Source of the DNA: Siphonodentalium dalli
Taxonomy: Eukaryota; Mollusca; Scaphopoda; Gadilida; Siphonodentaliidae
Assembly (NCBI GenBank): GCA_032622095.1
Contig: CP136062.1
Location: 16,681,739-16,745,738, forward strand
Direction: 5' to 3'
DNA length: 64,000 bases
Below the pieces are notes generated by a model that saw only the letters and a program-made list of their open reading frames with translations, was not told the DNA's origin and did not search any database. Made by a program: the position numbers and the translations under genes. This document shows positions 7,850 through 57,035 of this stretch, piece after piece (within the stretch, counting starts at the first letter, position 1; every line of letters starts with the position of its first letter).

Positions 7850-8015
7850 TATACAATGTTGTGTACAGTACTGTACAGTATGAGTTTTTCTTGTACTCGT
7901 CCAGGTTGTGGTGAAAAGTCATATTGGACTCAACACTGCGTGTCTCATCCAATATGACCTTTCACCACAACCTGGACTCGTACAAGAAAAACACATACTG
8001 TACACAACATTGTAT
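7850..8015. mobile_element. Palindromic MITE abutting the splice acceptor of the first lectin exon
   Basis: Left arm 7850-7928 and right arm 7947-8015 are near-perfect inverted copies (ATACAATGTTGTGTACAGTA at the outer end). The right end lies only 36 bases before the exon start, so branch point and pyrimidine tract must fall in the short gap or in the MITE itself. Confidence 0.8.
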
Positions 8016-8051
8016 AATAACAATATATTTCATTATTGTTCTTCTGACCAG

Positions 8052-8293
8052 GTCTTTGATTAATGGTAACCCAGTTCCGGGAGTCGTGTGGATAAGTCTA
8101 AATGACCTTGACACAGAGGAAGAGTTCACTATATGGAACGGTGGCAGGATGACGTGGACAGTATGGTCCTCTGAGCATAAAGGGAAGCCGTGGGGCGGAA
8201 CCACCCTGAACTGTGCTGTAATCAACCAAACTTCCAGTCAAGTATATTCACACAATTGTAATTGGACAAGGCCAAGTTTATGTGAATCTGAAG
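8052..8293 (+). CDS. CTLD exon, second half (exon 1 of the recognised set)
   Basis: Encodes the C-terminal half of a C-type lectin-like domain: VVWISLNDLDTEEEF (the WIGL-type core), a Trp-rich stretch, LNCAVI with the penultimate Cys pattern, HNCNW and a final SLCES. Acceptor TTCTGACCAG at 8051 gives phase 2; donor GAAG|GTAGAT at 8294 gives phase 1, as in the other second-half CTLD exons of this locus. NQT and NWT are possible N-glycosylation sites. No EPN/QPD motif and no WND, so classical calcium-dependent sugar binding is not predicted. The matching first-half exon was not found upstream. The exon end is the seed of the 51-bp array that follows. Confidence 0.85.
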
Positions 8294-9135
8294 GTAGATA
8301 TATTAATATATTTGTTGTGAGGCCGAGTTTATGTGAATCTGAAGGTAGATATATTAATATATTTGTTGCGAGGTCGAGTTTATGTGAATCTGAAGGTAGA
8401 TATATTAATATATTTGTTGTGAGGTCGAGTTTATGTGAATCTGAAGGTAGATATATTAATATATTTGTTGCGAGGCCAAGTTTATGTGAATCTGAAGGTA
8501 GATATATTAATATATTTGTTGTGAGGCCGAGTTTATGTGAATCTGAAGGTAGATATATTAATATATTTGTTGCGAGGTCGAGTTTATGTGAATCTGAAGG
8601 TAGTTATATTAATATATTTGTTGCGAGGCCAAGTTTATGTGAATCGGAAGGTAGATATATTAATATCTTTGTTGTGAGGTCGAGTTTATGTGAATCGGAA
8701 GGTAGATATATTAATATATTTGTTGCGAGGTCGAGTTTATGTGAATCTGAAGGTAGATATATTAATATATTTGTTGTGAGGTCGAGTTTATGTGAATCTG
8801 AAGGTAGACACTAGACATATTAATATATTTGTTGTGATGCCGAGTTTATGTGAATCTGAAGGTAGATATATTAATATATTTGTTGTGAGGCCAAGTTTAT
8901 GTGAATCTGAAGGTAGATATATTAATATATTTGTTGTGAGGTCGAGTTTATGTGAATCTGAAGGTAGATATATTAATATATTTGTTGCGAGGTCGAGTTT
9001 ATGTGAATCTGAAGATAGATATATTAATATATTTGTTGCGAGGTCGAGTTTATGTGAATCTGAAGGTAGATATATTAATATATTTGTTGTGAGGCCAAGT
9101 TTATGTGAATCTGAAGGTAGATATATTAATTTATT
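8276..9135 (+). repeat. 51-bp minisatellite made of the lectin exon end plus its 5' splice site, part 1
   Basis: About 17 copies of a 51-base unit (GTTTATGTGAATCTGAAGGT, then AGATATATTAATATATTTGT, then TG.GAGG.CGA). Each unit repeats the last codons of the preceding exon (SLCES) and the donor GAAG|GTAGAT. As 51 is a multiple of three and the unit has no stop, the exon frame stays open for about ten units to 8814, where an extra ACTAGACA-type insertion introduces a stop. Minus-strand frames are also open, so openness alone does not show translation. The array resumes at 10917. Confidence 0.95.
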
Positions 9136-9233
9136 ATATGCTTCCCTATCAAATTCTATTGATTTCATGTTCGAGTAAAAAGCTATATTTCGCTAGTCGA
9201 GCGCCCAACTGTGCGCCAACGTTATATTCCACA

Positions 9234-9300
9234 GTAGATTCCTTATATTACATGGTAGCTTCCTTATATTACACGCTAGCTTCCTTATATTAAACGCTAG
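9234..9300. repeat. 21-bp tandem repeat, three copies
   Basis: AGCTTCCTTATATTACACGC and close variants repeat about three times. The flanks belong to the sequence carrying the Crypton-like remnant. Confidence 0.7.
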
Positions 9301-9469
9301 CTCCAATCGGGGCGAATCACTTGTAATGCCGTTAAATTTTGAATTGATATTCATGCGCCTGAAGCGATACGGACTATTTGCACTTTTGCGCGTGAGATTT
9401 AGAGTATTTCCCCCTTAACTGCATTACAGACGCCTGTTTACATTAGCAATGTCATTCGTAAAGTAAAAT

Positions 9470-10358
9470 ATGGAAGACGGATTTGAAATAGACGTAGAAG
9501 GCGATGTGTTTTGGGACTCTTTACTGGAAAAATTAGCTAAATATAATGATAAAGATCCACAAGATTGTGTTCAGAATAGTGACTCAGAATAGTGACAACC
9601 CAGAGAGAGACCCGGTTAAATTATATCGTTTGTTCAGCGAGAAGCGACCAGAAGAGGAAAAAGCTCCAGACAGCCCATTCTTCCTCGCCGTCAATTACCA
9701 GGGCTGGAATAAAGGCAAGCCTTGGTATAAGCTCAATGCATTCGGCATTAATTCTTTAAATAGAATTGTGCAGGGCATGTGTGTAGACTCAGGCCTCACA
9801 ACGGATAAGCGACTTACCAACTATAGTGTTCGAAAACTGCTGGTCCAGTCACTTAACGATGAAAATGTACCACCGCATCAGATAATCCAAGTGTCAGGAC
9901 TCAAGAATGTGAACAGTTTGTTGAACTACTCCAAAATGAATGCTGTCCAAACAAAACATATTTCTTCAATTTTATCAAATACTGCTGGAAATAACAGAGT
10001 CAGAGTCACAGAGTCAGTACTCCCAGCTGCACAGCCTGTAGTCGAGCTTTCACCAGTATTGGAAACTGCACCTGCACCTGTACCAAGTCCTGACACTATT
10101 TCAACATCATCACCGACAAATGTAACTGTTTCCAAATCGACAGTTAGTGTATCGAACAGTGGTACACCTGGAGTTGAGAGTTCATCAAGTGCGATGCGAA
10201 GTTTGAAATCAATTTTCTCAAACGCAACTTTCAGTGGATCGGTGTACATGCACTTTCACAGCTGCTCACCGAAGTCTCACCACACAGAAGACACCGAGTC
10301 TTGTCCTATCGTGAAATACCGGCGAATCAGGAGAATAGTTGACAGTGACAGCGAGTGA
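9470..10358 (+). pseudogene. Crypton-like tyrosine recombinase remnant (internally deleted)
   Basis: A 40-codon acidic start at 9470-9592 (MEDGFEIDVEGDVFWDSLLE) runs into a stop. A second frame, open from 9546 to 10358, encodes the C-terminal part of a Crypton-type recombinase of the kind also domesticated in animal genes (KIAA1958/ZMYM-like): KLYRLFSEKRPEE, FFLAVNYQGWNKGKPWYK, RLTNYSVRKLLVQSL, SGLKNVNSLLNYSK. In this family the box is usually NHSxRK and GHKN; here the His positions are Tyr and Leu, so the active site looks lost, though the NYSK Tyr remains. The Ser/Thr/Pro-rich tail after residue 150 is typical linker-like sequence. CAGAATAGTGACTCAGAATAGTGAC at the join marks the deletion point. 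Sits inside the 51-bp array. Domestication is unlikely but not excluded. Confidence 0.7.
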
Positions 10359-10758
10359 AATTGAAGAGAAATTGTGTTGATTTTAATATTCCAAACTGCG
10401 AAGCGGAAGTATTGAATCAGTAATTAGGATTTTGGTATTTCTAAATGGAACGAACCTTTTGACAGTTTTTTGTTGTTATTTGTTCATTATGCTTGATAAA
10501 AATCAAATCATTTATTGAAGATAGGCAATTCTATTTCTTTGTTCGAGGTAATTTTTCATAAATTGATGAATATTTCGAATGGTTTCACTTCATTCTGGTG
10601 GGGTCATCGGGGACTATTTTTTGTGTGTGCACGCTTATTTTACAGAAGATCTAGTGAACTGGTCACAGAACAGCTGATTGATCAAAACAAGTCATTCGAT
10701 TTCTAATTTGTTGTATTGATTAAGCGCAGCTAATTTGTTTAGCATTTAATAAACAGAA

Positions 10759-10916
10759 TACCTGCAGTTCTCGAGTGAATACCAGAATTACCTCATTCGT
10801 GGCTACATTGGAATATAACTATTCCCACTCGCGGCCAAGGCCGCTCGTGGGAATAGTTATATTCCACTGTAGCCACTCATGAGGTAATTATGGTATTCAC
10901 TCGAGAACCGCAGGTA
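10759..10916. mobile_element. Palindromic MITE
   Basis: Terminal ATACCTGCAGTTCTCGAG is mirrored at 10899-10916; the arms meet at GCGGCCAAGGCCGC near 10831. No coding capacity. It separates the Crypton remnant from the second half of the 51-bp array. Confidence 0.85.
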
Positions 10917-11955
10917 TCCTCTATATATTTGTTGCGAGGCCAAGTTTATGTGAATCTGAAGGTAGATATATTAATATATTTGTTGCGAGGTCGAGTTTAT
11001 GTGAATCTGAAGGTAGACATATTAATATGTTTGTTGCGGGGACGAGTTTATGTGAATCTGAAGGTAGATATATTAACATATTTGTTGCGAGGTCGAGTTT
11101 ATGTGAATCTGAAGGTAGATATATTAATATATTTGTTGCGAGGTTGAGTTTATGTGAATCTCAAGGTAGATATATTATATATATTTGTTGCGAGGTCGAG
11201 TTTATGTGAATCTGAAGGTAGATATATTAATATATTTGTTGTGAGGCCAAGTTTATGTGAATCTGAAGGTAGATATATTAACATATTTGTTGCGAGGCCA
11301 AGTTTATGTGAATCTGAAGGTAGATATATTAATATATTTGTTGTGAGGCCAAGTTTATGTGAATCTGAAGGTAGTTATATTAATATATTTGTTGTGAGGC
11401 CAAGTTTATGTGAATCTGAAGGTAGATATATTAATATATTTGTTGCGAGGTCGAGTTTATGTGAATCTGAAGGTAGATATATTAATATATTTGTTGCGAG
11501 GTCGAGTTTATGTGAATCTGAAGGTAGTTATATTAATATATTTGTTGCGAGGTCGAGTTTATGTGAATCTGAAGGTAGATATATTAATATATTTGTTGCG
11601 AGGTCGAGTTTATGTGAATCTGAAGGTAGATATATTAATATATTTGTTGTGAGGCCAAGTTTATGTGAATCTGAAGGTAGATATATTAATATATTTGTTG
11701 CGAGGTCGAGTTTATGTGAATCTGAAGGTAGATATATTAATATATTTGTTGTGAGGCCAAGTTTATGTGAATCTGAAGGTAGATATATTAACATATTTGT
11801 TGCGAGGCCAAGTTTATGTGAATCTGAAGGTAGATATATTAATATATTTGTTGTGAGGCCGAGTTTATGCGAATCTGAAGGTAGTTACATTAATATATTT
11901 GTTGTGAGGCCGAGTTTATGTGAATCTGAAGGTAGATATATTAATATATCACATG
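10917..11955 (+). repeat. 51-bp minisatellite, part 2
   Basis: About 20 more copies of the same unit as at 8276-9135, again with the GAAG|GTAGAT donor in nearly every unit. A few units carry AGTTAT for AGATAT or indels (11168-11190). The plus-strand frame is open from 11154 to 12017. The two parts were probably one array interrupted by the 9.14-10.92 kb insert. Confidence 0.95.
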
Positions 11956-15831: not shown

Positions 15832-17252
15832 ACAAAAGAGGCCTAAACCACTCCAATAATCTCTGTTAAAAAGAGGCCTAAACCACTCCATTAATCTCTG
15901 TTAAATAGAGGCCTAAACCACTGCATTAATCTCTGTTAAAAAGAGGCCTAAACCATTCCATTAATCTCTGTTAAAAAGAGGCCTAAACCACTCCATTAAT
16001 CTCTGTTAAAAAGAGGCCTAAACCACTCCATTAATCTCTGTTAAAAAGAGGCCTAAACCACTCCAATCTCTGTTAAAAAGAGGCCTAAACCACTCCATTA
16101 ATCTATGTTAAAAAGAGGCCTAAACCACTCCATTAATCTCTGTTAAAAAGAGGCCTAAACCACTCCATTAATCTCTGTTAAAACGAGGCCTAAACCACTC
16201 CAATCTCTGTTAAAAAGAGGCCTAAACCATTCCATTAATCTCTGTTAAAAAGAGGCCTAAACCATTCCATTAATCTCTGTTAAAAAGAGGCCTAAACCAT
16301 TCCATTAATCTCTGTTAAAAAGAGGCCTAAACCATTCCATTAATCTCTGTTGAAAAGAGGCCTAAACCATTCCATTAATCTCTGTTGAAAAGAGGACTAA
16401 ACCACTCCAATAATCTCTGTTAAAAAGAGGCCTAAACCATTCCATTAATCTCTGTTAAAAAGAGGCCTAAACCACTCCATTAATCTCTGTTAAAAGAGGC
16501 CTAAAACACTCCAATCTCTGTTAAAAAGAGGCCTAAACCATTCCATTAATATCTGTTAAAAAGAGGCCTAAACCACTCCATTAATCTGTTAAAAAGAGGC
16601 CTAAACCATTCCATTAATCTCTGTTAAAAAGAGGCCTAAACCACTCCATTAATCTCTGTTAAAAAGAGACCTAAACCACTCCATTAATCTCTGTTAAAAG
16701 AGACCTAAACCACTCCATTAATCTCTGTTAAAAAGAGGCCTAAACCATTCCATTAATCTATGTTAAAAAGAGACCTAAACCACTCCATTAATCTCTGTTA
16801 AAAAGAGACCTAAACCACTCCATTAATCTCTGTTAAAAAGAGACCTAAACCACTCCATTAATCTCTGTTAAAAAGAGGCCTAAACCACTCCATTAATCTC
16901 TGTTAAAAAGAGACCTAAACCACTCCATTAATCTCTGTTAAAAAGAGACCTAAACCACTCCAATCTCTGTTAAAAAGAGGCCTAAACCACTCCATTAATC
17001 TCTGTTAAAAAGAGACCTAAACCACTCCAATAATCTCTGTTAAAAAGAGGCCTAAACCACTCCAATCTCTGTTAAAAAGAGGCCTAAACCACTCCATTAA
17101 TCTCTGTTAAAAAGAGGCCTAAACCACTCCATTAATCTCTGCTCAAAAGAGGCCTGAACCACTCCATTAATCTCTGTTAAAAAGAGACCTAAACCACTCC
17201 ATTAATCTCTGTTAAAAAGAGGCATGAACCACTCCAATCTCTGTTAAAAATG
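15832..17252. repeat. 35-bp minisatellite, about 40 copies
   Basis: Unit GTTAAAAAGAGGCCTAAACC + ACTCCATTAATCTCT (35 bases) with variants lacking ATTA or with GGCC changed to GACC. Flanked on the left by TTTTGGGTCA...TGACAAAA and on the right by AAAAATGCAGCTTAGAAAAC. Both flanks recur together, with about one unit between them, at 17713-17815. Confidence 0.95.
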
Positions 17253-17330
17253 CAGCTTAGAAAACTTATTATTAACACCTTATTTCTATTGCAGCCTCGA
17301 CAGTGACATGTACGTTCAAAATTATTTTCC
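17235..17330 (+). pseudogene. Duplicate of a lectin-exon acceptor and exon start
   Basis: AAAAATGCAGCTTAGAAAAC...TTGCAG|CCTCGACAGTGACATGT closely matches 17785-17870, the acceptor and first codons of the real exon at 17848. Downstream of about 17312 the similarity is lost and the frame soon stops. It is a partial copy and a potential decoy acceptor. Confidence 0.7.
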
Positions 17331-17847: not shown

Positions 17848-18025
17848 CTTCGACAGCGACATGTGCCCACCCACTTGCGTCCATGAACCTTGAACTACAA
17901 CGATGTTACTGGGTGATCAAAAAGCTGGTCGACCACCAAGAAGCAGAGGCTGCATGTCAGATATTCAATGGACATTTGGCAAACATATACAGCCCAGATA
18001 TCCACACCTTTGTCAAAGATCAGAT
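17848..18025 (+). CDS. CTLD exon, first half
   Basis: Acceptor CTGTTGCAG at 17847 (phase 1) and donor CAGAT|GTATGT at 18026 (phase 2). Encodes the N-terminal half of a long-form CTLD: ATCAHP and QRCYWV supply the extra Cys pair, then HQEAEAACQIFNGHLANIYS is the helix-2 region with the conserved Cys and GHLA, ending HTFVKDQM. Its phase-2 end fits the exon at 28235. The last 60 or so bases with the donor are duplicated about 207 bases downstream. Confidence 0.85.
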
Positions 18026-18162: not shown

Positions 18163-18234
18163 GAAAATGGCACATTTGGCGAACATATACAGCCCAGATA
18201 TCAACACATTTGTCAAGGATCAGATGTATGTTAA
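18163..18234 (+). pseudogene. Duplicate of the lectin exon 3' end and donor
   Basis: GCACATTTGGCGAACATATA through GATCAGAT|GTATGTTAA repeats 17963-18033 with a few substitutions. The donor is intact but there is no acceptor in front of it, so it is not a full exon. Confidence 0.75.
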
Positions 18235-20365: not shown

Positions 20366-20930
20366 TATATAAGGATTAACCCTTTACCCAACAAACCGGC
20401 CAAAACCGGCCAAATAAAGCTTCAACAGCCTAAAATATCTTCGGTCTGTCTCAATAGAACCATACAAATATGGATATCATTGGAACCGGCTCCTTGACCA
20501 CATTGTGATAGTTACAGTTAGCCCTGTGCCAATGCATTCTCTTATATATGCGAGTCGACCATAGGTCGCCTCGCATATATAAGAGAATGCATTGGCTTAA
20601 AAAAAATCTTTTTTTAACACTTTTTACCATTTTTTCTTACATTCTTTAACAATTTTATAATTTTTAATGTGTTAAGCCAATGCATTCTCTTATATATGCG
20701 AGGCGACCTATGGTCGACTCGCATATATAAGAGAATGCATTGGCACAGGGCCGTTCTGTTGGGTAAAGGGTTAACTGTCATGTGGACTGTTTTTATGGAG
20801 ATGTAACCGCGAGGTGAGTGGTCATAACTTGTGTAAAATCCAAAGGGTTTTAAATACAAGTTATGACCACTCACCTTGCGGTTACATCTCCATAAAAACA
20901 GTCCACATGACAGTTAATCCTTATATTCAT
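20366..20930. mobile_element. Palindromic MITE interrupted by a TTAA insertion
   Basis: ATAAGGATTAA before 20380 and TTAACTGTCATGTGGACTG after 20770 join into one arm whose inverted copy ends ACAGTTAATCCTTAT at about 20927. The insertion therefore hit a TTAA inside a pre-existing palindrome. Confidence 0.8.
20380..20770 (-). mobile_element. TTAA-flanked piggyBac-like MITE with two hairpins (ACCCAACA type)
   Basis: TTAA|CCCTTTACCCAACA ... TGTTGGGTAAAGGG|TTAA, 391 bases. Holds two copies of the hairpin module (20528-20596 and 20676-20744) separated by an A/T-rich spacer. The element at 32488-32870 is the same in opposite orientation. Confidence 0.85.
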
Positions 20931-28234: not shown

Positions 28235-28449
28235 ATACCATGGCTCATTCGACTTCGATTCGTGGCTCGGTGTGAATTACCTGGATGGTAGGTGGGGAAC
28301 GTGGAGTGGATACGAGTTATCGTGGGAGAATTGGAAGTCGTATCTGGCTGACTCAAGTGACGGGACATGTGCTACACTACAGAGTCCAGACGGTCAGTGG
28401 GTCCAGAAGAGATGTAATGACTCAAGTCATATTCTCTGTGAATCTGCAG
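28235..28449 (+). CDS. CTLD exon, second half
   Basis: Acceptor GATTTTTCAG at 28234 (phase 2); donor GCAG|GTGAGT at 28450 (phase 1); 215 bases, the same length as the exon at 34299. Encodes WLGVNYLDGRW, ELSWENWKSY, DGTCATLQSPDGQWVQKRC and HILCES: the WIGL core, and the three Cys of the C-terminal half. QWVQKRC stands where WND..C is expected, and no EPN/QPD is present. Pairs with the first-half exon at 17848. Skipping the donor meets a stop at once (GGT GAG TAA). Confidence 0.9.
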
Positions 28450-28519
28450 GTGAGTAAGATTGGTTTGGTCGTTATCCCATGTGCAGGTGAGTAAGATTGG
28501 TTTGGTCGTTATCCCATGA
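28446..28519 (+). repeat. 37-bp tandem duplication of the exon donor
   Basis: GCAGGTGAGTAAGATTGGTT and the next 17 bases occur twice head to tail (28446, 28483). This gives a second GCAG|GTGAGT at 28487. The true donor is probably the first; use of the second would add a stop-containing segment. Confidence 0.9.
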
Positions 28520-35702: not shown

Positions 35703-38700
35703 CCCCGAAACCAAATAAACAGTAATTGAGGGCGCTTAATAAATAGTAATTGAGGGGCGCTTAATAAATAGTAATCGAGGGCGCTTAATAAATAGTAATT
35801 GAGGGAGCTTAATAAATAGTAACTGAGGGCGCTTAATAAATAGTAATTGAGGGCGCTTAATAAATAGTAATTAAGGGCGCTTAATAAATAGTAATTGAGG
35901 GCGCTTAATAAATAGTAATTAAGGGCGCTTAATAAACAGTAATTGAGGGAGCTTAATAAATAGTAATTAAAGGAGCTTAATAAACAGTAATTGAGGGGAG
36001 CTTAATAAATAGTAATTGAGGGCGCTTAATAAATAGTAATCGAGGGCGCTTAATAAATAGTAATTGAGGGGAGCTTAATAAATAGTAATTGAGGGTGCTT
36101 AATAAATAGTAATTGAGGGGCGCTTAATAAATAGTAATTGAGGGCACTTAATAAATAGTAATTGAGGGCGCTTAATAAATAGTAATTAAAGGAGCTTAAT
36201 AAATAGTAATTGAGGGCGCTTAATAAACAGTAATTGAGGGAGCTTAATAAATAGTAATTGAGGGAGCTTAATAAATAGTAATTGAGGGCGGTTAATAAAC
36301 AGTAATTGAGGGCGCTTAATAAACAGTAATTGAGGGAGCTTAATAAATAGTAATTGAGGGCGCTTAATAAATAGTAATTGAGGGCGCTTAATAAATAGTA
36401 ATTGAGGGCGCTTAATAAATAGTATTTGAGGGAGCTTAATAAATAGTAATTGAGGGGCGCTTAATAAATAGTAATTGGGGGCACTTAATAAATAGTATTT
36501 GAGGGCGCTTAATAAATAGTATTTGAGGGTGCTTAATAAATAGTAATTGAGGGCGCTTAATAAATAGTAATTAAACGAGCTTAATAAATAGTAATTGAGG
36601 GCGCTTAATAAACAGTAATTGAGGGCGCTTAATAAATAGTAATTGAGGGTGCTTAATAAATAGTAATTAAGGGCGCTTAATAAATAGTAATTGAGGGCGC
36701 TTAATAAATAGTAATTGAGGGTGCTTAATAAATAGTAATTAAGGGCGCTTAATAAATAGTAATTGAGGGTGCTTAATAAATAGTAATTGGGGGGCGTTAA
36801 TAAATAGTAATTAAGGGCGCTTAATAAATAGTAATTGAGGGCGCTTAATAAATAGTAATTAAACGAGCTTAATAAATAGTAATTGAGGGCGCTTAATAAA
36901 CAGTAATTGAGGGCGCTTAATAAATAGTAATTGAGGGTGCTTAATAAATAGTAATTAAGGGCGCTTAATAAATAGTAATTGAGGGCGCTTAATAAATAGT
37001 AATTGAGGGTGCTTAATAAACAGTAATTGAGGGGCGTTAATAAATAGTAATTGAGGGCGCTTAATAAATAGTAATTGAGGGCGCTTAATAAATAGTAATT
37101 GAGGGTGCTTAATAAATAGTAATTAAGGGCGCTTAATAAATAGTAATTGAGGGGCGCTTAATAAATAGTAATTGGGGGCACTTAATAAATAGTATTTGAG
37201 GGCGCTTAATAAATAGTAATTGAGGGGGCTTAATAAATAGTAATTGAGGGCGCTTAATAAATAGTAATTAAACGAGCTTAATAAATAGTAATTGAGGGCG
37301 CTTAATAAACAGTAATTGAGGGCGCTTAATAAATAGTAATTGAGGGCGCTTAATAAATAGTAATTGAGGGCGCTTAATAAATAGTATTTGAGGGAGCTTA
37401 ATAAATAGTAATTGAGGGGCGCTTAATAAATAGTAATTGGGGGCACTTAATAAATAGTATTTGAGGGCGCTTAATAAATAGTATTTGAGGGTGCTTAATA
37501 AATAGTAATTGAGGGCGCTTAATAAATAGTAATTAAACGAGCTTAATAAATAGTAATTGAGGGCGCTTAATAAACAGTAATTGAGGGCGCTTAATAAATA
37601 GTAATTGAGGGAGCTTAATAAATAGTAATTAAGGGCGCTTAATAAACAGTAATTGAGGGCGCTTAATAAATAGTAATTGAGGGAGCTTAATAAATAGTAA
37701 TTAAGGGAGCTTAATAAATAGTAATTGAGGGCGCTTAATAAATAGTAATTGAGGGCGCTTAATAAATAGTAATTGAGGGAGCTTAATAAATAGTAATTGA
37801 GGGAGCTTAATAAATAGTAATTAAGGGCGCTTAATAAATAGTAATTGAGGGTGCTTAATAAATAGTAATTGAGGGTGCTTAATAAATAGTAATTAAGGGC
37901 GCTTAATAAATAGTAATTGAGGGCGCTTAATAAATAGTAATTGAGGGCGCTTAATAAATAGTAATTGAGGGCGCTTCATAAATAGTATTTGAGGGAGCTT
38001 AATAAATAGTAATTGAGGGGCGCTTAATAAATAGTAATTGGGGGCACTTAATAAATAGTATTTGAGGGCGCTTAATAAATAGTATTTGAGGGTGCTTAAT
38101 AAATAGTAATTGTGGGCGCTTAATAAATAGTAATTAAACGAGCTTAATAAATAGTAATTGAGGGCGCTTAATAAACAGTAATTGAGGGCGCTTAATAAAT
38201 AGTAATTGAGGGAGCTTAATAAATAGTAATTAAGGGAGCTTAATAAATAGTAATTGAGGGCGCTTAATAAATAGTAATCGAGGGCGCTTAATAAATAGTA
38301 ATTGAGGGGCGCTTAATAAATAGTAATTGAGGGCGCTTAATAAATAGTAATTGAGGGCGCTTAATAAATAGTAACTGAGGGCGCTTAATAAATAGTAATT
38401 GAGGGGCGCTTAATAAATAGTAATTGAGGGTGCTTAATAAATAGTAATTGGGGGGCGTTAATAAATAGTATTTAAGGGCGCTTAATAAATAGTAATTGAG
38501 GGCGCTTAATAAATAGTAATTAAACGAGCTTAATAAATAGTAATTGAGGGCGCTTAATAAACAGTAATTGAGGGCGCTTAATAAATAGTAATTGAGGGTG
38601 CTTAATAAATAGTAATTAAGGGCGCTTAATAAATAGTAATTGAGGGCGCTTAATAAATAGTAATTGAGGGTGCTTAATAAACAGTAATTGAGGGGCGTTA

Positions 38701-41700
38701 ATAAATAGTAATTGAGGGCGCTTAATAAATAGTAATTGAGGGCGCTTAATAAATAGTAATTGAGGGTGCTTAATAAATAGTAATTAAGGGCGCTTAATAA
38801 ATAGTAATTGAGGGGCGCTTAATAAATAGTAATTGGGGGCACTTAATAAATAGTATTTGAGGGCGCTTAATAAATAGTAATTGAGGGGGCTTAATAAATA
38901 GTAATTGAGGGCGCTTAATAAATAGTAATTAAACGAGCTTAATAAATAGTAATTGAGGGCGCTTAATAAACAGTAATTGAGGGCGCTTAATAAATAGTAA
39001 TTGAGGGCGCTTAATAAATAGTAATTGAGGGCGCTTAATAAATAGTATTTGAGGGAGCTTAATAAATAGTAATTGAGGGGCGCTTAATAAATAGTAATTG
39101 GGGGCACTTAATAAATAGTATTTGAGGGCGCTTAATAAATAGTATTTGAGGGTGCTTAATAAATAGTAATTGAGGGCGCTTAATAAATAGTAATTAAACG
39201 AGCTTAATAAATAGTAATTGAGGGCGCTTAATAAACAGTAATTGAGGGCGCTTAATAAATAGTAATTGAGGGAGCTTAATAAATAGTAATTAAGGGCACT
39301 TAATAAACAGTAATTGAGGGCGCTTAATAAATAGTAATTGAGGGAGCTTAATAAATAGTAATTAAGGGAGCTTAATAAATAGTAATTGAGGGCGCTTAAT
39401 AAACAGTAATTGAGGGCGCTTAATAAATAGTAATTGAGGGAGCTTAATAAATAGTAATTGAGGGAGCTTAATAAATAGTAATTAAGGGCGCTTAATAAAT
39501 AGTAATTGAGGGTGCTTAATAAATAGTAATTGAGGGTGCTTAATAAATAGTAATTAAGGGCGCTTAATAAATAGTAATTGAGGGCGCTTAATAAATAGTA
39601 ATTGAGGGCGCTTAATAAATAGTAATTGAGGGCGCTTCATAAATAGTATTTGAGGGAGCTTAATAAATAGTAATTGAGGGGCGCTTAATAAATAGTAATT
39701 GGGGGCACTTAATAAATAGTATTTGAGGGCGCTTAATAAATAGTATTTGAGGGTGCTTAATAAATAGTAATTGTGGGCGCTTAATAAATAGTAATTAAAC
39801 GAGCTTAATAAATAGTAATTGAGGGCGCTTAATAAACAGTAATTGAGGGCGCTTAATAAATAGTAATTGAGGGAGCTTAATAAATAGTAATTAAGGGAGC
39901 TTAATAAATAGTAATTGAGGGCGCTTAATAAATAGTAATCGAGGGCGCTTAATAAATAGTAATTGAGGGGCGCTTAATAAATAGTAATTGAGGGAGCTTA
40001 ATAAATAGTAATTGAGGGCGCTTAATAAATAGTAACTGAGGGCGCTTAATAAATAGTAATTGAGGGGCGCTTAATAAATAGTAATTGAGGGCGCTTAATA
40101 AATAGTAATTGAGGGCGCTTAATAAATAGTAATTGAGGGAGCTTAATAAATAGTAATTAAGGGAGCTTAATAAACAGTAATTGAGGGGCGCTTAATAAAT
40201 AGTAATTGAGGGTGCTTAATAAATAGTAATTGAGGGCGCTTAATAAATAGTAATTGAGGGCGCTTAATAAATAGTAATTGAGGGTGCTTAATAAATAGTA
40301 ATTGAGGGTGCTTAATAAATAGTAATTAAGGGCGCTTAATAAATAGTAATTGAGGGTGCTTAATAAATAGTAATTAAGGGCGCTTAATAAATAGTAATTG
40401 AGGGTGCTTAATAAATAGTAATTAAGGGGCGCTTAATAAATAGTAATTGAGGGCGCTTAATAAATAGTAATTAAAGGAGCTTAATAAATAGTAATTGAGG
40501 GAGCTTAATAAATAGTAATTGAGGGAGCTTAATAAATAGTAATTGAGGGAGCTTAATAAATAGTAATTGAGGGCGCTTAATAAATAGTAATTGAGGGTGC
40601 TTAATAAATAGTAATTGAGGGTGCTTAATAAATAGTAATTGAGGGGCGCTTAATAAATAGTAATTGAGGGCGCTTAATAAATAGTAATTAAGGGTGCTTA
40701 ATAAATAGTAATTGAGGGCGCTTAATAAATAGTAATTGAGGGGCGCTTAATAAATAGTAATTGAGGGTGCTTAATAAATAGTAATTGAGGGCGCTTAATA
40801 AATAGTAATTGAGGGCGCTTAATAAATAGTAATTGAGGGTGCTTAATAAATAGTAATTGAGGGTGCTTAATAAATAGTAATTAAGGGCGCTTAATAAATA
40901 GTAATTGAGGGTGCTTAATAAATAGTAATTAAGGGCGCTTAATAAATAGTAATTGAGGGTGCTTAATAAATAGTAATTGAGGGCGCTTAATAAATAGTAA
41001 TTGAGGACGCTTAATAAATAGTAATTGAGGGCGCTTAATAAATAGTAATTGAGGGCGCTTAATAAATAGTAATTGAGGGCGCTTAATAAATAGTAATTGA
41101 GGGTGCTTAATAAATAGTAATTAAGGGCGCTTAATACATAGTAATTGAGGGCGCTTAATAAACAGTAATTGAGGGCGCTTAATAAATAGTAATTGAGGGT
41201 GCTTAATAAATAGTAATTGAGGGTGCTTAATAAATAGTAATTAAGGGCGCTTAATAAATAGTAATTGAGGGTGCTTAATAAATAGTAATTGAGGGTGCTT
41301 AATAAATAGTAATCGAGGGCGCTTAATAAATAGTAATTGAGGGTGCTTAATAAATAGTAATTAAGGGAGCTTAATAAATAGTAATTGAGGGCGCTTTATA
41401 AATAGTAATTGAGGGCGCTTAATAAATAGTAATTGAGGGTGCTTAATAAATAGTAATTGAGGGCGCTTAATAAATAGTAATTAAAGGAGCTTAATAAATA
41501 GTAATTGAGGGCGCTTAATAAATAGTAATTGAGGGCGCTTAATAAATAGTAATTAAGGGCGCTTATTAAATAGTAATTGAGGGGCGCTTAATAAATAGTA
41601 ATTGAGGGCGCTTAATAAATAGTAATTGAGGGCGCTTAATAAATAGTAATTGAGGGCGCTTAATAAATAGTAATTGAGGGTGCTTAATAAATAGTAATTG

Positions 41701-44312
41701 AGGGCACTTAATAAATAGTAATTGAGGGGCGCTTAATAAATAGTAATTGAGGGGCGCTTAATAAATAGTAATTGAGGGGCGCTTAATAAATAGTAATTGA
41801 GGGGAGTTTAATAAATAGTAATTGAGGGGCGTTTAATAAATAGTAATTGAGGGGCGCTTAATAAATAGTAATTGAGGGCGCTTAATAAATATTAATTAAA
41901 GGAGCTTAATAAATAGTAATTGAGGGTGCTTAATAAATAGTAATTGAGGGGCGCTTAATAAATAGTAATTGAGGGCGCTTAATAAATAGTAATTGAAGGA
42001 GCTTAATAAATAGTAATTGAGGGAGCTTAATAAATAGTAATTGAGGGCGCTTAATAAATAGTAATTGAGGGGCGTTAATAAATAGTAATTGAGGCCGCTT
42101 AATAAATAGTAATTGAGGCCGCTTAATAAATAGTAATTGAGGGCGCTTAATAAATAGTAATTGAGGGCGCTTAATAAATAGTAATTGAGTGAGCTTAATA
42201 AATAGTAATTAAGGGCGCTTAATAAATAGTAATTGAGGGCGCTTAATAAATAGTAATTGAGGGCGCTTAATAAATAGTAATTGAGGGCGCTTAATAAATT
42301 GTAATTGAGGGCGCTTGATAAATTGTAATTGAGGGTGCTTGATAAATAGTAATTGAGGGCGCTTAATAAATAGTATTTGAGGGCGCTTAATAAATAGTAA
42401 TTGAGGGTGCTTAATAAATAGTAATTGAGGGCGCTTAATAAATAGTAATTGAGGGCGCTTAATAAATAGTAATTGAGGGTGCTTAATAAATAGTAATTGA
42501 GGGTGCTTAATAAATAGTAATTGAGGGCGCTTAATAAATAGTAATTGAGGACGCTTAATAAATAGTAATTGAGGGCGCTTAATAAATAGTAATTGAGGAC
42601 GCTTAATAAATAGTAATTGAGGGCGCTTAATAAATAGTAATTGAGGGCGCTTAATAAATAGTAATTGAGGGTGCTTAATAAATAGTAATTGAGGACGCTT
42701 AATAAATAGTAATTGAGGGAGCTTAATAAATAGTAATTGAGGGTGCTTAATAAATAGTAATTGAGGGTGCTTAATAAATAGTAATTGAGGGTGCTTAATA
42801 AATAGTAATTGAGGGAGCTTAATAAATAGTAATTGAGGGCGCTTAATAAATAGTAATTGAGGGCGCTTAATAAATAGTAATTGAGGACGCTTAATAAATA
42901 GTAATTAAGGGTGCTTAATAAATAGTAATTGAGGGTGCTTAATAAATAGTAATTGAGGGAGCTTAATAAATAGTAATTGAGGGAGCTTAATAAATAGTAA
43001 TTAAGGGTGCTTAATAAATAATAATTGAGGGAGCTTAATAAATAGTAATTGAGGGAGCTTAATAAATAGTAATTGAGGGAGCTTAATAAATAGTAATTGA
43101 GGGTGCTTAATAAATAGTAATTGAGGACGCTTAATAAATAGTAATTGAGGGAGCTTAATAAATAGTAATTGAGGGCGCTTAATAAATAGTAATTGAGGGA
43201 GCTTAATAAATAGTAATTGAGGGCGCTTAATAAATAGTAATTGAGGGAGCTTAATAAATAGTAATTGAGGGAGCTTAATAAATAGTAATTGAGGGCGCTT
43301 AATAAATAGTAATTAAGGGTGCTTAATAAACAGTAATTGAGGGCGCTTAATAAATAGTAATTGAGGGTGCTTAATAAATAGTAATTGAGGGTGCTTAATA
43401 AACAGTAATTGAGGACGCTTAATAAATAGTAATTAAGGGTGCTTAATAAATAGTAATTGAGGGAGCTTAATAAACAGTAATTGAGGGCGCTTAATAAATA
43501 GTAATTGAGGGCGCTTAATAAATAGTAATTGAGGGCGCTTAATAAATAGTAATTGAGGGTGCTTAATAAATAGTAATTGAGGACGCTTAATAAATAGTAA
43601 TTGAGGGAGCTTAATAAATAGTAATTGAGGGCGCTTAATAAATAGTAATTGAGGGCGCTTAATAAATAGTAATTGAGGGCGCTTAATAAATAGTAATTTA
43701 GGGGCGCTTAATAAATAGTAATTGAGGGAGCTTAATAAATAGTAATTGAGGGCGCTTAATAAACAGTAATTGAGGGCGCTTAATAAATAGTAATTGAGGG
43801 TGCTTAATAAATAGTAATTAAGGGGCGCTTAATAAATAGTAATTGAGGGCGCTTAATAAATAGTAATTGAGGGCGCTTAATAAATAGTAATTGAGGGCGC
43901 TTAATAAATAGTAATTGAGGGCGCTTAATAAATAGTATTTGAGGGCGCTTAATAAATAGTAATTGAGGGCGCTTAATAAATAGTAATTGAGGGCGCTTAA
44001 TAAATAGTATTTGAGGGCGCTTAATAAATAGTAATTGAGGGCGCTTAATAAATAGTATTTGAGGGCGCTTAATAAATAGTAATTGAGGGCGCTTAATAAA
44101 TAGTAATTGAGGGGCGCTTAATAAATAGTATTTGAGGTCGCTTAATAAATAGTATTTGAGGGGCACTTAATAAATAGTATTTGAGGGCGCTTAATAAATA
44201 GTATTTGAGGGGCGCTTAATAAATAGTATTTGAGGGCGCTTAATAAATAGTAATTGAGGGCGCTTAATAAATAGTAATTGAGGGGCGCTTAATAAATAGT
44301 AATTGAGGGATG
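35703..44312. repeat. 24-bp satellite array, about 8.6 kb
   Basis: Roughly 350 copies of CTTAATAAATAGTAATTGAG+GGCG (24 bases; 25 where an extra G is present). Common variants are GGAGC, GGTGC, TATTTG, AATTAAACGAGC and AATAAACAG. Ordered variant blocks repeat with a period of 1661 bases: the rare CTTCAT variant at 37974 and 39635, and ATTGTGGG at 38109 and 39770. Read on the minus strand one frame gives a repeating LLFIKRPQ, open only in places (43804-44166); not considered coding. The array fills most of the intron between 34513 and 50898. Confidence 0.97.
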
Positions 44313-53746: not shown

Positions 53747-53921
53747 AGTCGCCTACTTGTAACAATCCAGCTGCTCAGTATTACTCCGCTTCCCAATCCT
53801 GTTTTTGGTTGGAGACAGAGCTCAAATCAGCTTACGAGGGAAATGATGTCTGCACGTTCTATGGTGGAAACTTGGGTACTTTGTATGACAACAAAACAGT
53901 TGATTTCTTGAGAGATTACAT
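53747..53921 (+). CDS. CTLD exon, first half
   Basis: Acceptor ACAATTTCAG at 53746 (phase 1); donor TACAT|GTGAGT at 53922 (phase 2). Encodes ESPTCNNPAAQYYSASQSCF with the N-terminal Cys pair, then NDVCTFYGGNLGTLYDN and FLRDYM, the helix-2 Cys and GGNLxTL of CTLDs. Splices in phase to 56800. The 3' end with donor is copied at about 54008 and again at 55551. Confidence 0.85.
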
Positions 53922-53943
53922 GTGAGTCGATCATATCTCGATT

Positions 53944-54403
53944 TAACCCTTCCATGACTAGAGTTACTTCCCTTATTAACCATTCCATGACTGGAGTTAC
54001 CTCCCTTGAGAGATTACATGTGAGTCTATCATATCTCAATTTAACCCTTCTATGAGTGGAGTTACCTCCCTTGTTAACCCTTCCATGACTGGAGTTACCT
54101 CCCTTATTAACCCTTCCATGACTGGAGTTACCTCCCTTATTAACCCTTCCATGAGTGGAGTTACCTCCCTTGTTAACCCTTCCATGACTGGAGTTACCTC
54201 CCTTATTAACCCTTCCATGACTGGAGTTACCTCCCTTATTAACCCTTCCATGGCTGGAGTTACCTCCCTTATTAACCCTTCCATGGCTGGAATTACCTCC
54301 CTTATTAACCCTTCCATGGCTGGAGTTACCTCCCTTATTAACCCTTCCATGACTGGAGTTATCTCCCTTATTAACCCTTCCATGACTGGAGTTACCTCCC
54401 TTA
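53944..54403. repeat. 33-bp minisatellite resembling a transposon end
   Basis: About 13 copies of TTAACCCTTCCATGACTGGA+GTTACCTCCCTTA. The unit start resembles TTAACCCTTTCATGACTGGAG, the terminus of the 45692-50328 family. The array begins about 22 bases after the exon donor, and a copy of the exon end with donor (ATTACAT|GTGAGT) interrupts it near 54010. Open frames on both strands arise because 33 is a multiple of three. Confidence 0.9.
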
Positions 54404-55503
54404 TAGGGTCCTGCGAATATTCGATATTCGATTCGAGATTCGATTCGAAAGTCAAATTCGATCCGAATTCGATTCGAAATTGTCAACTCGAAATTTCGAA
54501 TATACACTGATGGAAAAGTAGGCTGTTTACGGGCAGGTGTACACGTCGATCTTAGCTGTTTTGTGACATTTAATTACAGAAAATGATGTATATATGTACC
54601 TTATAATTCTCATTGTACATCGTGATTATATATATTAAATATGTATAGACAGCAATTAGCCACTATAGGACAACTAAATACGTCTGATTTCTATCTTTGA
54701 ACATGGTAGCCAAAAGCTCGGAGATCGCCGATGGACCGACGACGCGCGTAAATTATAATAGCTATGAGACTGATCAACCGCTAGCGTTATCAGCAGTCTA
54801 TCCGTTTCAGATTCCGCGTTATGTAATATAGCTCAGAATTTAAACAACACGTGTTCCCGGCATCGAAAACTGCATTTTGGCGGTGTTTTCTTTTGAAGTT
54901 TACTTTCAAATTCGGAGCGTTCTTTGACACTTGACAAAACATCATCCGTTATTCATGTTTATTTTAAACATGATAAAGCTGCAGACTTACACATGTGATG
55001 AATGCAACATGGTGTATTAATCGCAAGCATCTGGGACACGACCCACCTATGGAATCATCTGTCCAAGAAGCATCCAGCACTACATAAACAGGCTACACTG
55101 CGACTATTGTTGCATCTTCAAGTTTATAACAACGGGTGATTCCGAATGTTGATTTGCAATTTTGCATGCACATGCAATCTGTACAAATTTTGCATGATTT
55201 TAGTTCCAATAATCCGTTTAGTGGTTATATATTAATTGTTGTGACGGCCGCTTGGACATTTTAATCAATTATCAATTGAAGTATTGCAAATGACGGTTCA
55301 TCGCCACATAAGTTATGATTTAACTTCGTGCATGTAGTTCATGGAACGTTTCACAAATCGCCTAATCGTTGACAAAACATGCCCAATTGAGAATACAACA
55401 TACAGATGTGATTCGAATCGATATTCGATTCGATATTCGATTCGATTTCCTGAATTCGATTCGATATTCGATTCGATCAAAATCTCCAATTCGCAGGACC
55501 CTA
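54404..55503. mobile_element. hAT-type non-autonomous element (1.1 kb)
   Basis: TAGGGTCCTGCGAAT at the left and its reverse complement ATTCGCAGGACCCTA at the right; 8-base target duplication CTCCCTTA at 54396-54403 and 55504-55511. Subterminal ATTCGATTCGA repeats at both ends. No transposase seen. It interrupts the 33-bp array. Confidence 0.85.
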
Positions 55504-56799: not shown

Positions 56800-57035
56800 A
56801 ACTGGGTTATGGACACAGAGTATAGCTTTGTCTTTCCGGATTGGAGTGACTGAGCGTAGGCTGACAGATTTTTGGCTAAAGTGGAATGGAGATTTCCTGA
56901 CTTGGGCTAACTGGAGTGACCCTAATGCTAAGGCCGAAAACCCACAAGTGCCATACATAGCTACCGTGATAGACACCTTCGCATGGAAAACTGACCGATT
57001 CAACAGAGAGCGAGCCTCATTGTGTGAATCTAAAA
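56800..57035 (+). CDS. CTLD exon, second half
   Basis: Acceptor CTTTTTAACAG at 56799 (phase 2); donor CTAAAA|GTAAGT at 57036 (phase 1). Encodes ALSFRIGVTERRLTDF, LKWNGDFLTWANWSDPN, FAWKTDRFNRERASLCES. FRIGV stands for WIGL. WNGD..TWANW is the conserved Trp stretch, and LCES closes the domain. The usual Cys pair in the long-loop region is absent (no Cys before SLCES), so the domain is structurally reduced. NWS is a possible glycosylation site. Pairs with 53747. Confidence 0.8.

What the first reader, a model, noticed from the sequence alone, without database searches (positions are those of the whole stretch)
8052..11955. Exon end and 5' splice site of a lectin gene amplified into an in-frame 51-bp array
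The last 17 or so bases of the CTLD exon (encoding SLCES) and its donor GAAG|GTAGAT are the core of a 51-base unit repeated about 37 times. The unit length is a multiple of three and each unit keeps the donor. Use of any one of the first ten or so donors would therefore lengthen the CTLD tail by multiples of 17 residues and still join the next exon in phase 1. Seen: repeats, donors, open frame to 8814. Inference: possible length-variable lectin isoforms, or splicing noise. Caution: a stop-free unit divisible by three stays open automatically, and other frames and the minus strand are open too.
Basis: partly seen in the sequence, partly recalled or inferred. Interest (0 to 1): 0.85.

Follow-up and report, generated by a model that had tools for sequence, protein, structure and literature searches.

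The report
Minisatellite overrunning lectin exon's splice donor
A short DNA repeat has copied the end of a lectin exon and its splicing signal 37 times; this looks like a tolerated "mirage" repeat, a kind already described in lancelets, and not a built-in generator of protein variants, but it leaves dozens of near-identical splice signals side by side.

Summary
The end of a C-type lectin exon (8052-8293) and its 5' splice site are copied into a 51-bp array of 37 cores, 36 of 37 with GT. The frame is open across 11 donors, up to a TAG at 8812-8814. The isoform reading is not supported. Unit variants show no codon bias (6 synonymous, 11 not). Sister exons carry copied donors at spacings mostly not divisible by three (3 of 17; 4 of 18 with one single copy left out there). 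In this multi-CTLD receptor family 15 of 63 inferred donors are copied, against 6 of 63 acceptors, 1 of 18 donors of other lectin exons and 0 of 33 of Sushi exons. Arrays run through donors into exons undiminished but thin out before acceptors. Best explanation: a "mirage"-type minisatellite, known from lancelet genes, tolerated because the exon-proximal donor still works. That last step is inferred; no RNA could be examined.

The parts
8052..8293 (+). CTLD second-half exon (ends ...RPSLCESE, phase 1)
   Evidence: Lectin_C E=1.2e-6; 66% aa identity to the paralogous exon at C2:28.738 Mb; dN/dS 0.251/1.014
8294..8295 (+). exon-proximal 5' splice site AAG|GTAGAT
   Evidence: position expected from family exon ends; fifth lowest of 63 by a family-made matrix; inferred, no RNA
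8275..9130 (+). 51-bp array, left part, 17 cores; 11 donors in open frame before TAG 8812-8814
9131..10924 (.). insert inside the array, with an ORF (9537-10358) matching DUF3504 and a palindrome near 10780-10920; boundaries approximate
   Evidence: DUF3504 E=7.3e-8
10925..11949 (+). 51-bp array, right part, 20 cores
17848..18025 (+). next exon (first half of the next CTLD, begins in phase 1); its end and donor are copied once, 200 bp downstream (about 18173-18232)
28445..28518 (+). 37-bp x2 repeat over the donor of the exon ending at 28449 (TGCAG|GTGAGTAAG twice); too little exon in the copy to pass the census threshold
   Evidence: TRF
53943..54404 (+). 33-bp array just after the exon 53747-53921; exon end and donor TTGAGAGATTACAT|GTGAGTC copied at +98
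20376..20775 (.). foldback-type element without the array; relatives at C4 and C6 carry 4 and 3 array cores inside

Best explanation
It is a minisatellite that spans an exon-intron boundary, of the kind called a 'mirage' in lancelet genes. A tandem duplication that included about 23-25 nt of exon end, the donor and about 26 nt of intron arose in a multi-CTLD receptor gene and expanded, presumably by unequal exchange or slippage. The copies lie downstream of the exon, so splicing from the exon-proximal donor leaves the protein unchanged and the other copies go out with the intron. Shown: anatomy, recurrence at sister exons, absence of repeats inside the exons examined, no detectable selection on frame or donor, array coverage undiminished through donors but falling towards acceptors. 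Inferred: that the first donor is the one used, and that the array is close to neutral.
For: Exon A is homologous through SLCES to a paralog without the array, so the gene is the source. Donor copies at 15 of 63 family exons, every one downstream; 6 of 63 acceptors, every copy upstream (first counts). Of 10918 exon-interior positions 502 have a copy nearby: 489 downstream, 13 upstream, 0 inside the exon. Coverage is 22-30% from +600 to -20 at the donor, then 15% and 5%; at the acceptor it falls from 17-22% beyond 80 bp to 6-9% within 40 bp, 7.5% in the first 8 nt of exon, 2.4% at 8-20 nt and 0 deeper. Spacings mostly not multiples of three: 3 of 17. No codon bias. Lancelet mirages are reported not to disturb splicing (PMC3087553, PMC3902484, passages).
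Against: No transcript was seen. The exon-proximal donor lacks G at +5, present in 57 of 63 family donors, so leakage to later copies is plausible. Core columns are slightly less variable than the rest (3 of 627 against 14 of 957, p=0.08). A human gene (6-16/IFI6) is reported to use two downstream repeat units as donors. The junction counts alone do not prove the asymmetry: 15/63 against 6/63, p=0.054, and less once paralogous pairs are collapsed (11/59 against 5/59, p=0.18, with the earlier acceptor count). The exon-copy asymmetry survives (17/63 against 2/63, p=0.0003; collapsed 13/59 against 2/59, p=0.004).
Confidence: 0.8

Rival explanations
1. Regulated or stochastic use of donors 1-11 makes lectin isoforms that differ by 17-residue steps (GRYINIFVVRPSLCESE).
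For: 11 donors in one open frame, all phase 1, near-identical; human 6-16 precedent for donors in repeat units; a weak first donor may leak.
Against: No synonymous bias; frame broken by +7 and +1 indels; sister copies mostly at spacings not divisible by three; lancelet mirages reported not to disturb splicing.
Confidence: 0.1
2. Splicing noise: downstream donors are used at a few percent without function, giving mixed low-level products. This can be true together with the best explanation.
For: Many near-identical weak donors; no selection seen.
Against: RT-PCR in lancelet globins and the Adh3 data are reported as regular; no RNA here.
Confidence: 0.3
3. The array is a mobile-element satellite that inserted next to the exon and happens to resemble it.
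For: Cores occur inside a foldback-type element at C4 (4 cores) and C6 (3 cores).
Against: The unit holds 23-25 nt of CTLD coding sequence homologous to the paralog; the element copy in this window has no array. The lectin looks like the source and the element like the borrower.
Confidence: 0.03
4. Assembly artefact: collapsed or inflated repeat.
For: Tandem arrays are error-prone; reads were not available.
Against: Units differ from each other (13 variable columns in 33 full units); an insert and indels anchor it; cores also exist at C4 and C6.
Confidence: 0.03

Closest known systems
'Mirage' minisatellites of lancelets (Adh3, globins BflGb6 and BflGb9, troponin C, PGBD5)
   Same: [quoted passage not shown] many units with splice signals; unit lengths vary (10-160 bp there; copy spacings 23-200 bp here, one single copy at 414); 5' and 3' boundaries both affected (PMC3087553 and PMC3902484, passages).
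   Different: 37 copies here (6 and 3 units in the two globin haplotypes described); recurs at 15 of 63 exons of one receptor family; donor-side bias; splicing and length instability not tested; animal not named.
Human IFI6 / 6-16 (G1P3) minisatellite with multiple splice donor sites (Turri et al. 1995; paper not held; title and one citing sentence seen)
   Same: A repeat that duplicates the donor at an exon end; downstream units could extend the exon.
   Different: There two downstream units are reported as used donors, giving three mRNAs; a 12-bp unit (recalled). Here a 51-bp unit, use unknown, sister copies mostly not in frame.
Internal tandem repeats that alter gene structure in human segmental duplications (PMC2812944, passages)
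   Same: Minisatellites at exon-intron boundaries can change gene structure.
   Different: There about half change coding sequence and boundary repeats may form novel introns; here no repeat was seen inside an exon (0 of 10918 positions).

Membership tests
mirage minisatellite | tandem repeat spans an exon-intron boundary | tested here: met
   cores hold exon end, donor and intron start; paralog confirms exon homology; boundary inferred from homology, not RNA
mirage minisatellite | many units keep splice signals | tested here: met
   36 of 37 GT
mirage minisatellite | regular mRNA splicing undisturbed | not testable with these tools
   no RNA data
mirage minisatellite | length instability between haplotypes | not testable with these tools
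   one assembly only
mirage minisatellite | concerted evolution among units | tested here: inconclusive
   shared dimorphic columns 44, 49, 51; no clear trend of distance with lag
mirage minisatellite | occurs in a cephalochordate (the reported cases seen) | tested here: inconclusive
   animal unnamed; GFP (PF01353) and hemocyanin (PF14830) searches empty, which does not show absence
6-16 type multi-donor minisatellite | downstream repeat donors used in transcripts | not testable with these tools
   no RNA data
6-16 type multi-donor minisatellite | unit length keeps the frame | tested here: met
   51 = 3 x 17 for this array; not a family trait: 3 of 17 spacings, 4 of 18 if the single +414 copy of L025 is added
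multi-CTLD (mannose-receptor-like) gene | serial CTLD exons | tested here: met
   half-CTLD matches in the window near 8052, 17848, 28254, 34327, 53755 and 56882, the last three weak in some searches (e.g. E=0.15 for 34327); that they form one gene is inferred and the name mannose-receptor-like is recalled

The most novel reading that the evidence does not exclude
The receptor family is a hot spot of hypermutable donor arrays that act as a splicing diversifier. Leaky choice among near-identical donors would give in-frame ladders (here 17-residue steps) and, at sister exons with other spacings, frame-shifted, truncated and perhaps soluble receptor forms. Array length would set the mix in each individual.
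Probability: 0.08. Interest if true: 0.85.

Novelty: new member of a known kind. Interest (0 to 1): 0.45.

Why it matters
A natural locus with 36 near-identical 5' splice sites in a row, beside sister exons with arrays of stronger donors (GTAAGT, GTGAGT) at other spacings, is a ready-made test of how the spliceosome picks one donor among many. The sequence pattern (arrays free to cross donors, thinned out at acceptors) predicts that the exon-proximal, first-transcribed donor wins. It also shows how exon-derived minisatellites can accumulate without visible damage to the coding sequence and be carried elsewhere by a mobile element.

Tried and rejected
Frame conservation as a selected trait: rejected on the unit variants and on spacings (3 of 17; that list left out the single +414 copy of L025, a multiple of three, so 4 of 18 with it; it includes one control array, 36 bp, two below the census threshold, 37 and 23 bp, and two single-copy distances, 98 and 200 bp; the spacing in L021 is irregular and was entered as 139).

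Selection to keep the donor: not shown. 36 of 37 keep GT, but the core is only slightly less variable than the rest (p=0.08 by sites, p=0.10 by columns).

Donor-specific targeting: not shown. Donors are covered at about the rate of the surrounding intron (15 of 63 against 6872 of 31608 positions, 22%); what differs is the acceptor side.

Genome-wide habit: not supported. Sushi exons: 0 of 33 donors and 0 of 33 acceptors (40 fetched with 600-bp flanks, 7 dropped because no donor was found), family against Sushi p=0.002. Other CTLD exons: donor 1 of 18, acceptor 0 of 16 (20 picked by hand from the second-half-type hits, 2 dropped for no donor, acceptor not found in 2 more). Why this family is so rich in arrays is unexplained.

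A mistake mended: searches took the match start as the acceptor for the 22 second-half exons, and chose some doubtful acceptors. redid this with inferred acceptors: acceptor copies rose from 5 to 6 of 63 (L061 added), the junction p-value went from 0.026 to 0.054, the profile and the exon-copy counts kept their shape. A few acceptors (L063, L064, L069, the exon at 56882) remain doubtful.

Donor strength: by a matrix made from the 63 family donors (dominated by first-half exons) the donor is fifth lowest; by a recalled general matrix it is only low to middling, with 5 of the 22 second-half donors below it.

C7 core: a single two-mismatch match without an array, set aside.

Literature: one search listed 8 papers, of which two had been opened for passages and six were not opened; two searches were empty.

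Full report
OBSERVATION. The window lies at C2:16681739-16745738 of a 2.23-Gb, nine-contig genome. At 8275-11949 there are 37 cores AGTTTATGTGAATCTGAAG|GTAG, 36 of 37 with GT. TRF reports 16.7 and 20.1 copies of a 51-bp unit at 93-94% match. The frame stays open from 7915 to 8814, so 11 donors lie before the TAG at 8812-8814, which comes with a 7-bp insertion. A 1-bp insertion breaks the frame again in the unit at 11147.

THE GENE. The exon 8052-8293 is the second half of a C-type lectin domain. Its closest relative is at C2:28.738 Mb, 66% identical in protein, and the next exon also has a close relative there (79%). Further related exons lie at C2:16.5-16.9, 28.7-28.9 and 224.0-225.2 Mb. Three exons compared between the two closest genes give dN/dS of 0.251/1.014, 0.134/0.509 and 0.100/0.593 (NG86), so the gene looks maintained. 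The paralogous exon has no 51-bp array; it matches through SLCES and then differs. The repeat core therefore comes from the lectin exon, not the reverse.

Among 17 unit variants 6 are synonymous and 11 are not in the exon frame; chance gives 21-29% synonymous, P=0.13-0.36; the other two frames show no excess either. Core columns 1-19 have 3 changes in 627 sites, the others 14 in 957 once three dimorphic columns are left out, p=0.08. The donor AAG|GTAGAT scores fifth lowest of 63 by a matrix made from the family (57 of 63 have G at +5, this one does not); by a recalled general matrix it is low to middling, with 5 of 22 second-half donors lower. None of this suggests a frame or donor kept for isoforms.

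THE SAME THING ELSEWHERE. The census used a 22-nt window centred on each junction, with at least 19 matches elsewhere in the fetched stretch (up to about 900 bp). First-half exons: 41 of the 42 matches (one partial copy left out). Second-half exons: 22, namely 17 of the 27 matches (those in or near the family's stretches of C2, many with weak E-values), 2 of the 5 and 3. Donors are copied in 10 of 41 and 5 of 22. Acceptors are copied in 5 of 41 and, after a correction, 1 of 22. All donor copies lie downstream and all acceptor copies upstream. Exon ends are inferred from homology and a recalled donor matrix, not from RNA. Examples: a 55-bp unit with GTAAGT, 15 and 16 further donor copies in the stretch (L017, L019), 31 bp (L029), 109 bp (L050, L053), 53 bp (L067, L068). 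Two further short duplications fall below the threshold: 37 bp at 28445 and 23 bp in L007. Of 17 spacings 3 are multiples of three; that list omitted the single +414 copy of L025, and with it the count is 4 of 18.

ASYMMETRY. Of 10918 exon-interior positions 502 have a copy nearby: 489 downstream, 13 upstream, none inside the exon; 17 of 63 exons are copied downstream and 2 of 63 upstream (p=0.0003, or 13/59 against 2/59, p=0.004, with paralogous pairs collapsed). Coverage on the donor side is 22-30% from 600 bp in the intron to 20 nt inside the exon; on the acceptor side it falls from 17-22% beyond 80 bp to 6-9% within 40 bp, 7.5% in the first 8 nt of exon, 2.4% at 8-20 nt and 0 deeper (which corrects for the second-half exons). 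Junction counts alone are weaker: 15/63 against 6/63, p=0.054; with pairs collapsed and the earlier acceptor count, 11/59 against 5/59, p=0.18. Neighbouring positions and sister exons are not independent, so the profile is descriptive. My reading, an inference: extra donors downstream are harmless because the exon-proximal, first-transcribed donor is taken, whereas an extra acceptor upstream would be met first and taken.

HOW WIDESPREAD. Other lectin exons, 20 picked by hand: donor copies in 1 of 18 (L084, a 36-bp unit, 21 further donor copies), acceptors 0 of 16, intron background 9.6%. Sushi exons, taken in list order by a fixed rule (full domain, open frame at most 130 residues, no stop), with 600-bp flanks: 0 of 33 for both, background about 1-4% beyond 40 bp (40 fetched, 7 dropped for lack of a donor; several come from the same gene clusters). 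The family background is 24% and 18%; family against Sushi donors p=0.002. The family is a hot spot in this comparison; I cannot say why.

THE ARRAY TRAVELS. Four cores at C4 and three at C6 sit inside a foldback-type element, within blocks 97.8% identical over 3788 bp. The window has a related element at 20376-20775 without the array. A mobile element seems to have picked up a piece of the lectin array.

LITERATURE. Tandem repeats across exon-intron boundaries are known from lancelets as 'mirages', with reports that they do not disturb splicing, are length-unstable and could seed new introns (PMC3087553, passages including part of the abstract; PMC3902484, one passage). Human 6-16 is the precedent for used repeat donors (a citing sentence and the title only). 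I saw no report of such arrays in a lectin receptor family in the listings, most of whose papers I did not open; most subscription papers are not held.

VERDICT. Confirmed observation, known kind, unusual scale. Isoform function is possible but unsupported.

Noticed in passing
L017, L019 (C2:225.007 and 224.345 Mb): 55-bp donor arrays with strong donor GTAAGT; most units also carry ATCTACAG before a 33-nt stretch ending at the donor, so units could in principle act as tiny exons.
   Followed up: partly
L084 (C5:70.834 Mb): Another lectin exon end with a 36-bp donor array (21 further donor copies), unit divisible by three, donor GTGAGT; a better candidate than the window for in-frame isoforms.
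   Followed up: no
L005, L006 (C4:28.296 Mb, C6:192.262 Mb): Foldback-type element carrying pieces of the lectin exon array, in blocks 97.8% identical over 3.8 kb.
   Followed up: partly
window 35714-44309: 24-bp tandem array of about 357 copies, between exons of the same gene region.
   Followed up: no
window 15834-17250 and about 17240-17310: 35-bp array upstream of exon 17848; the acceptor region of that exon is duplicated about 553 bp upstream.
   Followed up: partly
C3:206394530-206402929: A single open frame of 2818 residues with dozens of Sushi matches.
   Followed up: no
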